Source: Comamonas sp. SCN 65-56 (lineage in GTDB: Bacteria; Pseudomonadota; Gammaproteobacteria; Burkholderiales; Burkholderiaceae_C). Taken from it: a stretch of DNA of 64,000 nucleotides. The number at the start of each line of letters is the position of its first letter. Position 1 is the first letter of the stretch. The notes under the pieces were generated by a model. The model was given only the letters and a program-made list of their open reading frames with translations, was not told the origin of the DNA and made no database searches. Positions 57,314-64,000 of this stretch are shown piece after piece. The DNA is taken from positions 81,933 to 145,932 of the forward strand of contig NZ_MEDS01000005.1 of the NCBI RefSeq assembly GCF_001724135.1, written 5' to 3'. Made by a program: the position numbers and the translations under genes.

Positions 57314-57553
57314 ATGACCACAGCACCGACCGATGCCAGCGACCGCGGCGATGACCATTTCTGGCACCTGGCGCGCAGCGGCTCGGGGGTGGCGGTGACG
57401 GATGTGGAATTTGCGCTGATGCGCACGGCCGAATCGTTTGCCCGCTGGCAGAGCGAGTGCCTGGCAGCCGTGACGGGCGCGCAGCTCTCGGGCAGCGAGA
57501 ACACCATGCTGCATGTGGGGTCGCTTCAGAAAACGGAAAATAAAGCACGCTAA
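57314..57553 (+). pseudogene. MarR-like regulator truncated by transposon insertion
   Basis: The first 67-68 codons (57314-57516) code for the start of a MarR-like winged-helix regulator: HFWHLARSGSGVAVTDVEFA, ESFARWQSECLAAVTG and LSGSENTMLHV. The transposon end begins at 57517 and cuts the gene where the DNA-binding domain should start. The frame runs on through the transposon end to TAA at 57551-57553, adding foreign residues (GSLQKTENKAR). The gene is divergent from the flavin monooxygenase pair, so it was probably its regulator. The missing 3' part should lie beyond the far end of the mobile region. Confidence 0.82.
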
Positions 57554-57554
57554 G
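57517..57554 (+). repeat. Tn3-family terminal inverted repeat 1 (outermost)
   Basis: This is a 38-base end beginning GGGGTCGCTTCAGAAAACGG and ending GCACGCTAAG. It differs from the Tn21-type end as I recall it only by a swapped CT/TC near base 8. It interrupts the MarR-like gene. It reads inward to the right. Confidence 0.9.
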
Positions 57555-57655
57555 CGTGCGCAGAAGCTGGAACCCAGCGGTACAGCGTAGGAACGGACAC
57601 GCCGAGGTTCTTGGCCACGTCCTTGGGCGGAACGCCGCTGGCCAGCAACTTCTTA
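57550..57655 (-). pseudogene. 3' remnant of a resolvase (serine recombinase) gene
   Basis: On the minus strand about 34 codons read KKLLASGVPPKDVAKNLGVS, VPTLYRWVPASAHA and stop (TAG 57550-57552, inside terminal repeat 1). This is the C-terminal helix-turn-helix of a Tn3-type resolvase, different from the TnpR at 63224. The fragment is cut at 57655/57656 by terminal repeat 2. It shows that transposon 1 had its resolvase gene ending at its terminal repeat and was invaded by transposon 2. Confidence 0.82.
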
Positions 57656-57692
57656 GGGGCGTCTCAGAAGACGGAATACAATGCGCGCTAAG
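57656..57692 (+). repeat. Tn3-family terminal inverted repeat 2
   Basis: This is a 37-base end beginning GGGGCGTCTCAGAAGACGG and ending GCGCGCTAAG, one base shorter than the usual 38. Same orientation as the first. It lies 62 bases upstream of the PAP2 gene and interrupts the resolvase remnant. Confidence 0.85.
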
Positions 57693-57754
57693 CTGGTTGC
57701 AATGGCCGTAGCGGCGACCCGCTGATTGACAATCAGAAAGCGATCAAAGAAGGC

Positions 57755-60323: not shown

Positions 60324-63221
60324 ACCCGGATAGAGGACGTAGCGGTCTGAACTTGCCAGCGCCGATCTTGGCGCTGCTGCGCCACAGGTAATCGCCGGTC
60401 AGGTTGATGTGTTCCCAGCCCAGCGGCGACAGGTACGGCAACAGCGCCTCATCGACGGCATGGCCGTTGCCACGCAAGGCATGCGCTGCGCGCTCCAGGT
60501 AGACCGTGTTCCACAACACGACGGCTGCCGTGACTAGGTTGAGACCGCTGGCCCGGTAGCGCTGTTGCTCGAAACTGCGGTCGCGGATTTCCCCTAGCCG
60601 GTTGAAGAACACGGCGCGGGCCAGTGCGTTGCGCGCTTCGCCCTTGTTCAACCCGGCATGCACGCGGCGGCGCAGTTCCACGCTTTGCAGCCAGTCCAGG
60701 ATGAACAGCGTGCGTTCGATGCGCCCCAGCTCGCGCAGCGCCACGGCCAGGCCGTTCTGGCGCGGGTAGCTGCCGAGCTTGCGCAGCATCAGCGAGGCCG
60801 TCACCGTGCCCTGCTTGATCGAGGTAGCCAGGCGCAGGATTTCGTCCCAATGGGCACGGATAGCCTTGATGTTCAGCTTGTCGCTGCCAATCATCGGCTT
60901 GAGTGCGTCGTAACTTGTTTCACCCTTGGGAATGAACAGCTTGGTGTCGCCCAAGTCGCGGATGCGCGGTGCAAAGCGGAAGCCCAAGAGGTGCATCAGC
61001 GCGAAGACGTGATCGGTGAAGCCCGCTGTGTCGGTGTAGTGCTCCTCGATTCGCAGGTCGGATTCGTGGTACAGCAAGCCGTCGAGCACGTAGGTCGAAT
61101 CGCGCACGCCGACGTTCACGACCTTGGTGTGGAACGGCGCGTACTGGTCAGAGATGTGGGTGTAGAACGTTCGCCCTGGGCTGCTGCCGTATTTCGGGTT
61201 GATGTGGCCGGTGCTCTCGGCCTTGCTCCCGGTTCGGAAGTTCTGACCATCCGACGATGATGTGGTGCCGTCGCCCCAGTGCTCGGCGAAGGGATGCCGG
61301 AACTGGGCGTTCACCAATTCGGCTAGCGCTGTCGAATAGGTTTCGTCGCGGGTATGCCAAGCTTGCAGCCAGGCGAGCTTGGCGTAGGTTGTGCCGGGGC
61401 AGGACTCGGCCATCTTGGTCAGGCCCAGGTTGATTGCGTCGGCCAGGATGGTGGTCAGCAGCAGATTTTTGTCCTTGGCCAGGTCGCCCGATTTCAGGTG
61501 CGTGAAGTGGCGGGTGAAGCCCGTCCACTCATCGACTTCGAGCAATAGTTCGGTGATCTTGACGTGCGGCAGGATCATCGCCGTCTGGTCGATCAGCGCC
61601 TGCGCCGTGTCGGGCACGGCGGCATCCAGCGGCGTGATCTTCAGGCCCGACTCAGTGATGATCGCATCCGGCAGGTCGTTGGCCAACGCCATTCGGTTGA
61701 CGGTGGCAAGCTGCGCCTCCAGCAGCTCCAAGCGCTCGCTCAGGTACTGGTCGCAATCGGTGACCACGGCCAACGGCAATTCGCGGGACCGCTTGAGGCT
61801 GGCGAACTTTGCAGGCGGTACCAGGTAGTCCTCGAAGTCCTTGAATTGGCGTGAACCCTGTACCCAAATGTCGCCCGAGCGCAGCAAGTTCTTGAGTTCC
61901 GACAGCACGCACAGTTCGTAATAACGCCGGTCGATTCCGGCGTCGGTCATCACCAGCTTCTGCCAACGCGGCTTGATGAAATCGGTTGGGGCATCGGCGG
62001 GCACCTTGCGGACGTTGTCGGTGTTCATGCCGCGCAGCACCTCGATGGCATCAAGCACGTTCTTGGCGGCAGGTGCGGCCCGCAGCTTGAGTACATCGAG
62101 AAATTCCGGCGCGTAGCGACGCAATGTGGCGTAGCTTTCGCCGATACGGTGTAGGAAATCGAAATCATCGGGTTGAGCGAGCTTCTGTGCCTCGGTGACG
62201 CTCTCGGCGAAGGCATCCCAGGACATGACTGCCTCAATGGCGGCGAACGGGTCGCGGCCCGACTGCTTGGCGTCGATCAGCGCCTGGCCAATGCGCCCAT
62301 ACAGGCGCACCTTGGCGTTGATGGCCGGTCGTGTAGGTCGATGATTTCGTCGGTAACAGTAGCCATGCCCTCGATGGCCAGCGCCACGAGGGTAGCGTAG
62401 CGCCGCTGCGGCTCGAACTTGGCCAGATCAGCGGGCGTCATCTGGCCGCCCTCGCGGGCGATCTTGAGCAGCCGATTCTGGTGAATCAGGCGCTCGATAC
62501 CAGAAGGCAGGTCGAGTGCCTGCCACGCCTTGAGACGTTCGATGTGTTCGAGCATGTGCCGTGAATTGGGCTTGGCCGGTGACTGGCGCAGCCAGGCCAG
62601 CCAGGTTGGCTTGCCGTTGTCGCGGCGCTTGAGCAGGTCGTCGAGGCGACGCCGGTGCCCATTCGACAACGGCTCGGACAAGGCTTCGTAGATGCGCCGG
62701 TTGGCGCGGGTGATGGCCTCGGCACTGGCGCGCTCGATGGCGTTGAGCGCCGGCAGGATGATCGACTGTCGCCGCAGATGCTCAATCAAGGCGCTGGCCA
62801 GCACGATGCCCTTGTCGGTTTGCGTGGCCAGCTCGGTCAGCGTGTGTACGGCCTTCCGGTAGTGGCTCATGGTGAACGGCTGGAAACCGAAGACCGTTTG
62901 CAGCTCCACCAGGTGTTCGCGCCGGGTCTGCTCCCGCTGCCCGTAGTTGTCCCAGCTTTCGACACCGACCTTGATCTGGTCGGCGACTAGTTTCAGCAAG
63001 GGCGGGAACGGCGGCTGATCGACACCAAGGAGAATGCCGGGAAAGCGCAGGTAACAGAGCTGCACGGCGAAGCCCAACCGGTTTGCAGGCCCACGCCGCT
63101 GCCGGATGATCGAGAGATCGGTATCGCTGAACGAGTAATGCCGGATCAAATCGTCCTTGGCGTCCGGCAACGCCAGCAGGCTTTCCCGCTCGGCGGCGGG
63201 CAGGATGGAACGACGGGGCAT
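60319..63221 (-). pseudogene. tnpA: Tn3-family transposase gene, frameshifted by an internal deletion
   Basis: The transposase (DDE type, needed for cointegrate formation) is split. The first part, 63221 to about 62326, codes for MPRRSILPAAERESLLALPD to DEIIDLHDR. The second, in another frame, continues NAKVRLYGRIGQALIDAK to the end (KIGAGKFRPLRPLSGS). Compared with Tn21/Tn501 transposases as I recall them, about 22-23 codons between DLHDR and INAKVRLYG are missing. The DNA junction is at about 62325/62326 and the loss (about 67 bases) is not a multiple of three. Out-of-frame codons follow to a stop at 62277. The DDE region is otherwise intact, but no full protein is expected. It starts 2 bases after the tnpR stop. 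Confidence 0.88.
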
Positions 63222-63223
63222 GT

Positions 63224-63784
63224 TTACTGATCAGTTCTCAAGTATTGATACAGGGTCTCCCGGCTGACACCGAACTCGCGGGCCAGTTTTGACTTTTGTT
63301 CGCCTGCGTCGGCCCGTTGACGCAACTCGGCCGCACGCTCTGGCGACAGGGCTTTCTTGCGGCCCCGGTAGGCACCGCGCTGCTTGGCCAGCGCAATGCC
63401 CTCGCGCTGCCTCTCGCGGATCAGGGCGCGCTCGAATTCGGCGAATGCCCCCATCACGGACAGCATCAGATTTGCCATCGGCGAGTCCTCGCCGGTGAAG
63501 GTCAGGCATTCCTTGACGAACTCGATGCGCACGCCGCGCTTGGTGAGCTTTTGCACCAGGCGGCGCAAGTCATCGAGATTGCGCGCCAGGCGATCCATGC
63601 TGTGCACCACCACGGTGTCGCCCTCGCGCACGAAGGCCAGCAGCGTGTCGAGCTGCTGGCGCTGTGTATCTTTGCCCGACGCTTTGTCGGTGAACACCTT
63701 GTCCACCTGACTCTGTTCGAGCTGGCGTTCCGGGTTTTGGTCGAAGCTGCTGACCCGCACGTAGCCGATGCGTTGACCGTTCAA
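63224..63784 (-). CDS. tnpR: Tn3-family resolvase TnpR
   Basis: This 186-residue serine recombinase resolves cointegrates at res. The catalytic Ser lies in RIGYVRVSSFDQNPERQL (about residue 12), followed by VHSMDRLARNLDDLRRLV, GAFAEFERALIRERQREGI and the C-terminal helix-turn-helix KSKLAREFGVSRETLYQYLR. It is close to the Tn501/Tn1721/Tn21 resolvases. The start codon is TTG (63784-63782). It reads in the same direction as tnpA, with res upstream. Confidence 0.95.
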   Translation of the reverse strand: MNGQRIGYVRVSSFDQNPERQLEQSQVDKVFTDKASGKDTQRQQLDTLLAFVREGDTVVVHSMDRLARNLDDLRRLVQKLTKRGVRIEFVKECLTFTGEDSPMANLMLSVMGAFAEFERALIRERQREGIALAKQRGAYRGRKKALSPERAAELRQRADAGEQKSKLAREFGVSRETLYQYLRTDQ

Positions 63785-63905
63785 GGGTGTCTCTTGCGCA
63801 AAGTGTCAGCCAGAAGTCTATAACCCTTGACGGATGCTGTCAATAAATGCTGAACAAGACTCTAACTTAACGCATTCTAATTGCGGAGCCTGACGCCAAG
63901 CTAGG
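63785..63905. promoter_or_regulatory. res: Candidate res site and tnpR promoter
   Basis: The region upstream of tnpR holds the arrangement known from Tn21-type res sites: on the minus strand TTTATTGACAGC...GTCAAGGGTTATAGAC...CTGACACTTTGCG, preceded by a further GCGTCAGG half-site. TTGACA (63843-63838) and TATAGA (63822-63817), 15 bases apart, are a candidate tnpR promoter inside res. Exact subsite limits cannot be fixed by eye. From 63906 to 64000 nothing recognisable is seen except a short CCCCTTAGGGG palindrome. Confidence 0.65.
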
Positions 63906-64000
63906 GTATAGCTCAAAATGACGGTTGTTCGTTTAGTTCGTCCCCTTAGGGGCCTGGCGGGGACTATCCTTTTGCGCTGGCGCGACGCTCTGAACGGAAC

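What the first reader, a model, noticed from the sequence alone, without database searches (positions are those of the whole stretch)
57517..64000. Nested Tn3-family ends enclosing a mobile lipid A modification module
Three Tn3-type terminal repeats lie in the same orientation. Between the second and third are a phosphoethanolamine transferase with the full MCR/EptA catalytic set and a PAP2 phosphatase. The arrangement (basic transposon with tnpA, tnpR, res; passengers outside its tnpA-side end; further end beyond) is like Tn1721 built on Tn1722. Using end 2 with the far end would move the module; using end 3 would move only the core. A PAP2 gene paired with this kind of transferase also parallels mcr-1, but on a different class of element.
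Basis: partly seen in the sequence, partly recalled or inferred. Interest (0 to 1): 0.85.

Follow-up and report, generated by a model that had tools for sequence, protein, structure and literature searches.

The report
Mobile lipid A remodelling transposon
Two genes predicted to remodel the bacterial outer membrane, which would likely blunt the antibiotic colistin, sit together inside a jumping DNA element, and a near-identical copy inserted at a different place in a second bacterial genome shows that the pair has moved more than once.

Summary
The three Tn3-type ends, the PAP2 gene and the EptA-type gene are real. The contig stops at the window end, but contig C4 of the same assembly overlaps it by exactly 99 bases and carries the missing inverse end (IR4). 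IR1 to IR4 measures 8,886 bp, is flanked by CATGT and splits a winged-helix regulator gene; two same-genus genomes have this site empty. A second copy of the module (99.755% over 2,860 bp) lies on a 6.4-kb MAG contig as a 2,931-bp unit without transposase, flanked by CTCTT, inside a kfrA-like gene. The element's own tnpA reads in two frames, so it is probably non-autonomous now. The transferase passes the cut-off of the PRK09598 EptA model and no MCR cut-off; the best solved-structure match of the PAP2 protein is the lipid A phosphatase LpxE. Best reading: a mobile LpxE-then-EptA pair. Enzyme activities, expression and colistin resistance are untested. New variant of a known kind (mcr-5 on a Tn3-family element; mcr-1 with pap2).

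The parts
57314..57516 (+). 5' part of the interrupted winged-helix regulator gene; its last five bases CATGT are the target duplication
   Evidence: Sequence; the rest of the gene (HTH_27) follows CATGT after IR4 on contig C4; flanks contiguous with a 5-bp overlap in G004 and G001
57517..57554 (+). IR1, outermost 38-bp end used in both known insertions
   Evidence: 35/38 to IR4, 36/38 to IR5 of L010
57555..57654 (-). 3' tail of a foreign resolvase gene from another Tn3-family element
   Evidence: 57517-57654 is 92% identical to the resolvase-side end of L115, L116 and L118, whose resolvase is 38% identical to the tnpR of this window
57655..57692 (+). IR2, 38 bp, first base A where L010 has G; internal leftover of a tnpA-side end
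   Evidence: 57656-57715 matches the tnpA-side ends of L115, L116, L117 and L118 at 83-85%
57755..58663 (+). PAP2 phosphatase, 302 aa, likely LpxE-type
   Evidence: PF01569; motifs KHWASASRP, PSGH, SRVAVGAHWPLD; best solved match LpxE 6ebu, E 3.7e-9
58627..60282 (-). EptA-type phosphoethanolamine transferase, 551 aa, convergent with PAP2 (ends overlap)
   Evidence: NF007160 622.5 bits, cut-off 561; PF00884 and PF08019; 5fgn E 2.5e-70
60286..60323 (+). IR3, 38-bp tnpA-side end, three bases before the eptA start codon
   Evidence: same place in L010
60319..62310 (-). tnpA, C-terminal part (own frame)
   Evidence: NF033527 positions 308-954; PF01526
62277..63221 (-). tnpA, N-terminal part (other frame); gene interrupted
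   Evidence: NF033527 positions 3-280; a short stretch is missing relative to L116, L118 and L119
63224..63784 (-). tnpR, serine resolvase, 186 aa
   Evidence: PF00239 and PF02796; 91% identical to the resolvase of L119
63785..63963 (.). Region upstream of tnpR, where res would be expected
   Evidence: Similarity to plasmid Tn3 elements runs on to about 63847-63925; sub-sites were not mapped
63902..64000 (.). 99 bp identical to the start of contig C4: the join to the right arm (MFS, MerR-type regulator, thioredoxin-like gene, IR4)
63964..64000 (-). 3' end of the MFS transporter gene that continues on contig C4 (L009:63-1433)

Best explanation
A Tn3-family (Tn21-like) composite element, 8,886 bp when two contigs are taken together at their exact 99-bp overlap and flanked by the 5-bp repeat CATGT, carries a PAP2 phosphatase gene and an EptA-type transferase gene that are predicted to remodel the 1-position of lipid A in two steps. 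Shown by sequence: outer ends IR1 and IR4, the target duplication, the empty site in two relatives, and a second insertion of the same module (2,931 bp, no transposase, CTCTT duplication) in another assembly. Inferred: a Tn21-like transposase pairs the outermost ends and copies what lies between, so IR2 and IR3 are leftovers of earlier layers; since the element's own tnpA is interrupted, it likely depends on a transposase in trans. Inferred: the PAP2 protein removes the lipid A 1-phosphate (LpxE-like) and EptA then adds phosphoethanolamine there, which would lower the negative surface charge and the binding of polymyxins. Inferred: because IR3 sits three bases before the eptA start, the native upstream region is gone and expression probably relies on transcription from tnpR-tnpA, which run the same way, or from the new neighbourhood.
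For: CATGT before IR1 and after IR4, with the regulator gene continuing beyond. Unique 99-bp contig overlap. Empty site with exact 5-bp overlap in G004 and G001. Second copy 99.755% over 2,860 bp with CTCTT on both sides in a kfrA-like gene. No close eptA in the other 59 of 60 genomes searched (best 42%). NF007160 score above its cut-off, as for six of six tested PAP2-linked loci. PAP2 best solved match LpxE. PAP2 gene within 2.5 kb of eptA in 25 of 40 loci, 20 of 40 at E<=1e-15 (profile built from these same loci). Two-step LpxE/EptA precedent in print (passages).
Against: No activity, expression or susceptibility data. The promoter scan found one sigma-70-like site, no more than shuffles give (1 against a mean of 1.2), and it lies before tnpR, none next to eptA; no obvious ribosome-binding site precedes eptA. 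LpxE similarity is weak (39 bits) and other PAP2 phosphatases match too, more weakly. The genes are convergent here, not an operon. The contig join is inferred. L010 is a 6.4-kb contig of a metagenome bin, and a FliE-like gene stands beside the kfrA-like one, so plasmid location there is doubtful. The tnpA break could be an assembly error.
Confidence: 0.65

Rival explanations
1. Tn1721-like working: IR2 with the far end moves the module, IR3 with the far end moves the core alone.
For: Three ends in one orientation and one inverse end; IR3 directly bounds the tnpA-tnpR core.
Against: Both insertions seen use IR1. IR2 has an altered first base in the window and IR3 matches IR4 at 31 of 38 positions, IR1 at 35.
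Confidence: 0.12
2. The PAP2 protein is not an LpxE but a general phosphatase (undecaprenyl or phospholipid type) that helps by recycling lipid by-products, as proposed for pap2 next to mcr-1; EptA then adds phosphoethanolamine to an existing phosphate.
For: Weak NCBIfam matches to undecaprenyl-diphosphatase and PgpB models, all far under their cut-offs; pap2 beside mcr-1 and its discussed recycling role (PMC10285318, passages).
Against: Best solved match is LpxE rather than PgpB (3.7e-9 against 6e-5); the EptA belongs to the group whose tested two-step pairs it resembles.
Confidence: 0.3
3. A decaying relic: the insertion is real but eptA has lost its promoter, tnpA is broken, and the module does nothing.
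For: tnpA interrupted; eptA start three bases from IR3 without an evident ribosome-binding site; no promoter-like site beside eptA.
Against: Both reading frames are whole, and between two assemblies EptA is 100% and PAP2 99% identical. The eptA protein cluster holds 11 sequences on 21 contigs.
Confidence: 0.2
4. Assembly or binning artefact that placed a plasmid or foreign fragment here.
For: Element lies at a contig end; contamination estimate 2.77%.
Against: Both halves of the split gene and the CATGT repeat are on separate contigs that overlap by 99 unique bases, and relatives have the intact site.
Confidence: 0.04

Closest known systems
mcr-5 Tn3-family transposon (7,337 bp; Salmonella plasmid, Cupriavidus gilardii; PMC8550137 and PMC13373230, passages)
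   Same: A phosphoethanolamine transferase gene inside a Tn3-family element, with betaproteobacterial hosts
   Different: MCR-5 model scores 279 bits against a cut-off of 1250; here a PAP2 gene accompanies it, the ends are nested, and a transposase-less miniature exists. The mcr-5 element itself was not compared at DNA level
mcr-1 with pap2 (PMC10285318, passages)
   Same: PAP2 gene next to a mobile transferase gene
   Different: Transferase outside the MCR-1 model (201 bits, cut-off 1100); different class of mobile element
Tn1721 built on Tn1722 (recalled)
   Same: Several ends in one orientation around passenger genes and a tnpA-tnpR core
   Different: IR1 and IR3 match at 30 of 38, coming from different elements, and the outermost end is the one used; passengers sit beyond the tnpA end behind two further ends
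TIMEs and TIME-COMPs, Tn3-derived miniature elements (PMC4133298, passages; PMC13367494, abstract and passages)
   Same: L010 copy: no transposase, 38-bp ends, 5-bp duplication, passenger genes between ends
   Different: Not bounded by two copies of one TIME: a 162-bp inverted IR5/IR3 unit on one side, IR1-resolvase tail-IR2 on the other
Chromosomal lpxE-eptA pairs of Capnocytophaga, Helicobacter, Xanthomonas (PMC4730577, PMC8306577, passages)
   Same: Lipid A phosphatase-type gene beside an EptA gene; the 75% relative L011 has a PMT-superfamily glycosyltransferase and a histidine kinase nearby
   Different: Those are chromosomal and operonic; here the pair is convergent, without a regulator, inside a transposon

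Membership tests
Tn3 family (Tn21-like) | 38-bp inverted ends starting GGGG | tested here: met
   IR1 and IR4 match at 35 of 38
Tn3 family (Tn21-like) | 5-bp target duplication | tested here: met
   CATGT on both sides and empty site in two genomes; CTCTT in L010
Tn3 family (Tn21-like) | Working Tn3 DDE transposase gene | tested here: not met
   PF01526 and NF033527 present, but the gene reads in two frames. Whether this is decay or an assembly error is open; so it is a Tn3-family derivative, not a complete transposon
Tn3 family (Tn21-like) | Serine resolvase and res site | tested here: inconclusive
   Resolvase found; res sub-sites not mapped
Tn1721-type nested transposon | Extra ends are near-identical copies and the inner transposon moves alone | tested here: not met
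   IR1/IR3 30 of 38; no insertion bounded by IR3 seen. Definition recalled
MCR families | Score above NCBI's curated MCR cut-off | tested here: not met
   At most 279 bits (MCR-5) against cut-offs of 1075-1250 for the MCR models listed
MCR families | Confers colistin resistance when moved | not testable with these tools
   No susceptibility data
EptA, PRK09598 (NF007160) group | Score above curated cut-off | tested here: met
   622.5 bits against 561; four chromosomal homologues from relatives stay at 299-328
LpxE lipid A 1-phosphatase | PAP2 fold with the three catalytic motifs | tested here: met
   PF01569; motifs
LpxE lipid A 1-phosphatase | Closer to LpxE than to other PAP2 phosphatases, acts on lipid A 1-phosphate | tested here: inconclusive
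   Best solved match LpxE, E 3.7e-9, 39 bits; activity untested
TIME-COMP (L010 copy) | No transposase, 38-bp ends, 5-bp duplication | tested here: met
   No tnpA or tnpR match in L010 beyond about 90 bp of tnpA tail; CTCTT
TIME-COMP (L010 copy) | Passenger bounded by two copies of one TIME | tested here: not met
   A 162-bp IR5/IR3 unit on one side only

The most novel reading that the evidence does not exclude
A complete two-step lipid A remodelling pathway (an LpxE-type 1-phosphatase and its partner EptA, from a branch outside all MCR families) has become a free-standing mobile cassette: cut loose from its chromosomal regulators, it travels in Burkholderiales both in a Tn21-like composite and as a 2.9-kb transposase-less miniature with the same nested ends.
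Probability: 0.4. Interest if true: 0.78.

Novelty: new variant of a known kind. Interest (0 to 1): 0.6.

Why it matters
Mobile colistin resistance genes are sought by likeness to MCR; this transferase falls under every MCR cut-off, yet its module shows target duplications in two assemblies. If the two-step reading holds, what moves is a pathway that first changes the lipid A substrate and then decorates it. The miniature copy also shows that Tn3 ends can reduce such a module to 2.9 kb and still move it, presumably with a transposase made by another element.

Tried and rejected
Plasmids: of 72,556 PLSDB plasmids, 2,336 match the transferase protein, all under 60% identity; the best of the 40 rows listed has 47%. 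DNA: none of the 5,000 best-scoring plasmid records (limit reached) covers 80% of the region; E. coli genomes 0 of 5,426 at that coverage. Viral contigs: one stretch matched a pattern, none encodes a relative. Module DNA in 399 family genomes: 242 have some match at E<=0.001, mostly short (ends or generic transferase DNA); only the own genome and G402 (78% and 71%; same DNA as L011 over the 4,508 bp compared) match over most of both genes. 399 genomes of the order and 398 of the phylum: only the own genome at E<=1e-80 (the draws partly repeat genomes).

Contig C34 as the far side: one short Tn3 transposase match (34.8 bits, 86 of 389 positions), no end of this type on it. IR2 or IR3 as the end used last: rejected because CATGT and CTCTT stand at IR1. 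Plasmid location of L010: left open, since KfrA_N and weak plasmid matches (at most about 40% identity in the 8 of 160 records listed) stand against a FliE-like gene on the same contig. Source paper of L010: one search listed candidates, none was read and none is claimed. Which of the 8.9-kb and 2.9-kb forms came first: not resolved. Literature: the listings (open-licence papers only; 10 of 39, 6 of 6 and 12 of 84 papers shown) name no such element. No structure was predicted.
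Full report
What is there. The window is the right end of a 145,932-bp contig (C5) of a 3.6-Mb genome in 51 contigs. A 75% relative of the transferase in G402, which the tool puts in the same family, has the same DNA over 4,508 bp as a record titled Methylibium, so the host is most likely a member of the Burkholderiales; its name is not known. Three Tn3-type ends lie in one orientation at 57517 (IR1), 57655 (IR2) and 60286 (IR3). The same pattern with up to 3 mismatches finds one further copy in the genome, inverse, at C4:2466-2501, and none when read backwards.

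The missing right side. The last 99 bases of the window are identical to the first 99 of contig C4, and a search of the whole genome finds them in no third place. C4 then carries an MFS transporter, a MerR-type regulator and a thioredoxin-like protein, then the inverse end IR4, then CATGT and the rest of a winged-helix gene (HTH_27). CATGT is also the five bases before IR1. From IR1 to IR4 the element measures 8,886 bp. In two same-genus genomes, G004 and G001, left and right flanks are contiguous and overlap by exactly five bases. Of 9 genus genomes searched with the left flank, the own one and these two match over the full 617 bases, a fourth over 39 bases, and five not at all. The site is thus empty in the two relatives that have it.

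A second insertion. A scan of GTDB species genomes with the transferase returned 40 loci. L010, a 6.4-kb contig of a MAG titled Burkholderiales bacterium AWTP1-25, matches window 57517-60376 at 99.755% over 2,860 bp: IR1, the resolvase tail, IR2, PAP2, eptA, IR3 and about 50 bp of tnpA tail beyond IR3. There the tail turns into an inverted, diverged tnpA tail (80.6%) that ends in another 38-bp end, IR5. The 2,931-bp unit IR5-IR1 has CTCTT on both sides and splits a gene whose N-terminal part matches KfrA_N (E 3.2e-13). Its C-terminal part matches proteins encoded in 160 of 72,556 plasmids, at about 35-41% in the 8 listed. Against a plasmid, a FliE-like gene lies on the same contig. IR5 and IR3 form a 162-bp inverted unit; the 165 bases from IR5 to the eptA start fold far better than shuffles (z -13.6). 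It resembles the miniature Tn3-derived elements (TIMEs) of PMC4133298 (passages) and PMC13367494 (abstract and passages). No transposase or resolvase protein match was found in L010.

Which ends work. In both insertions the duplication lies at IR1 and the inverse far end. IR1 matches IR4 at 35 of 38 positions and IR5 at 36, but IR3 at 30. IR2 has A where L010 has a terminal G. IR1 and the next 100 bp are 92% identical to the resolvase-side end of other Tn3 elements (L115, L116, L118), whose resolvase is 38% identical to the one here; IR2 resembles their tnpA-side end. I read IR2 and IR3 as internal leftovers of earlier insertions (inference). The window's tnpA reads in two frames and lacks a short stretch present in L116, L118 and the Cupriavidus plasmid element L119, where one transposase gene is annotated. 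This may be decay or an assembly error. Apart from it, the genome holds one short Tn3 transposase match, on C34.

The passengers. The transferase scores 622.5 bits on NF007160 (cut-off 561), 430.8 on the general NF028537 (cut-off 500) and at most 279 on MCR models. Six of six tested PAP2-linked loci pass NF007160; two of them (L036, L037) also pass NF028537. Four tested homologues from relatives pass NF028537 and stay at 299-328 on NF007160. It aligns with Neisseria EptA (5fgn) over residues 26-545 and with MCR-1 over 68-494. E254, T292, D460, H461 and further histidines are present (roles by analogy with MCR-1, recalled), but the loop with the MCR-1 lysine is shortened. PAP2 keeps its three motifs. 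Its best solved match is LpxE (6ebu, E 3.7e-9), followed by PgpB (6e-5) and acid phosphatases; for a flavobacterial PAP2 next to eptA, LpxE is the only match at E<=0.01. A PAP2 gene lies within 2.5 kb of eptA in 25 of 40 loci, 20 of them at E<=1e-15, with a profile built from these same loci. The own genome also holds a 33% homologue on C12; of the 59 other genomes searched none has one above 42%, so this gene is foreign to the lineage.

Mechanism. Shown: the element, its ends, its duplications, the empty site and the two placements. Inferred: LpxE-type removal of the 1-phosphate, then transfer by EptA, on the model of Capnocytophaga canimorsus, where deleting either gene lowers the polymyxin B MIC and the double mutant equals the lpxE mutant (PMC4730577, abstract and passages). 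A chromosomal origin is suggested by L011, which has a PMT-superfamily glycosyltransferase and a histidine kinase nearby, somewhat like the arnT-lpxE-eptA cluster beside raxRH in Xanthomonas (PMC8306577, abstract and passages). IR3 stands three bases before the eptA start in both copies. The promoter scan gives no support for a promoter beside eptA (one site in the region, before tnpR, no more than chance), so expression is an open question.

Novelty. Transferases on Tn3-family elements (mcr-5) and PAP2-linked mobile ones (mcr-1) are known (passages). New here are the EptA group, the nested ends, the miniature form and the likely two-step pair. The listings show no paper describing it. Verdict: new variant of a known kind, interest 0.6.

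Noticed in passing
L009:63-2244 (contig C4, right arm of the element): MFS transporter, MerR-type regulator (best NCBIfam match Zn-responsive ZntR, under cut-off) and thioredoxin-like protein form a second passenger set; the MFS DNA is about 80% identical to Paraburkholderia fungorum plasmids.
   Followed up: partly
L025:12772-13533: Herbaspirillum aquaticum carries a stretch 98.8% identical (254 aa) to the C-terminal part of this tnpA about 5 kb from its own 49% eptA.
   Followed up: no
L011 and L012: Records titled Methylibium and Zoogloea (both MAGs) share 5.1 kb at 98.6% around eptA and PAP2, which could mean transfer or mis-binning.
   Followed up: no
L026:12394-12431: Curvibacter lanceolatus has a Tn3-type end identical to IR5 about 4 kb from its PAP2-eptA pair.
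   Followed up: no
L010:2086-2247: A 162-bp near-palindrome made of two diverged tnpA tails head to head with ends on both sides; the turn lies at a short natural palindrome of tnpA. How it arose is unclear.
   Followed up: partly
window 63902-64000 and C4:1-99: The assembly breaks at an exact 99-bp overlap although the sequence occurs in no third place, which may point to a second variant of the element in the sample.
   Followed up: no
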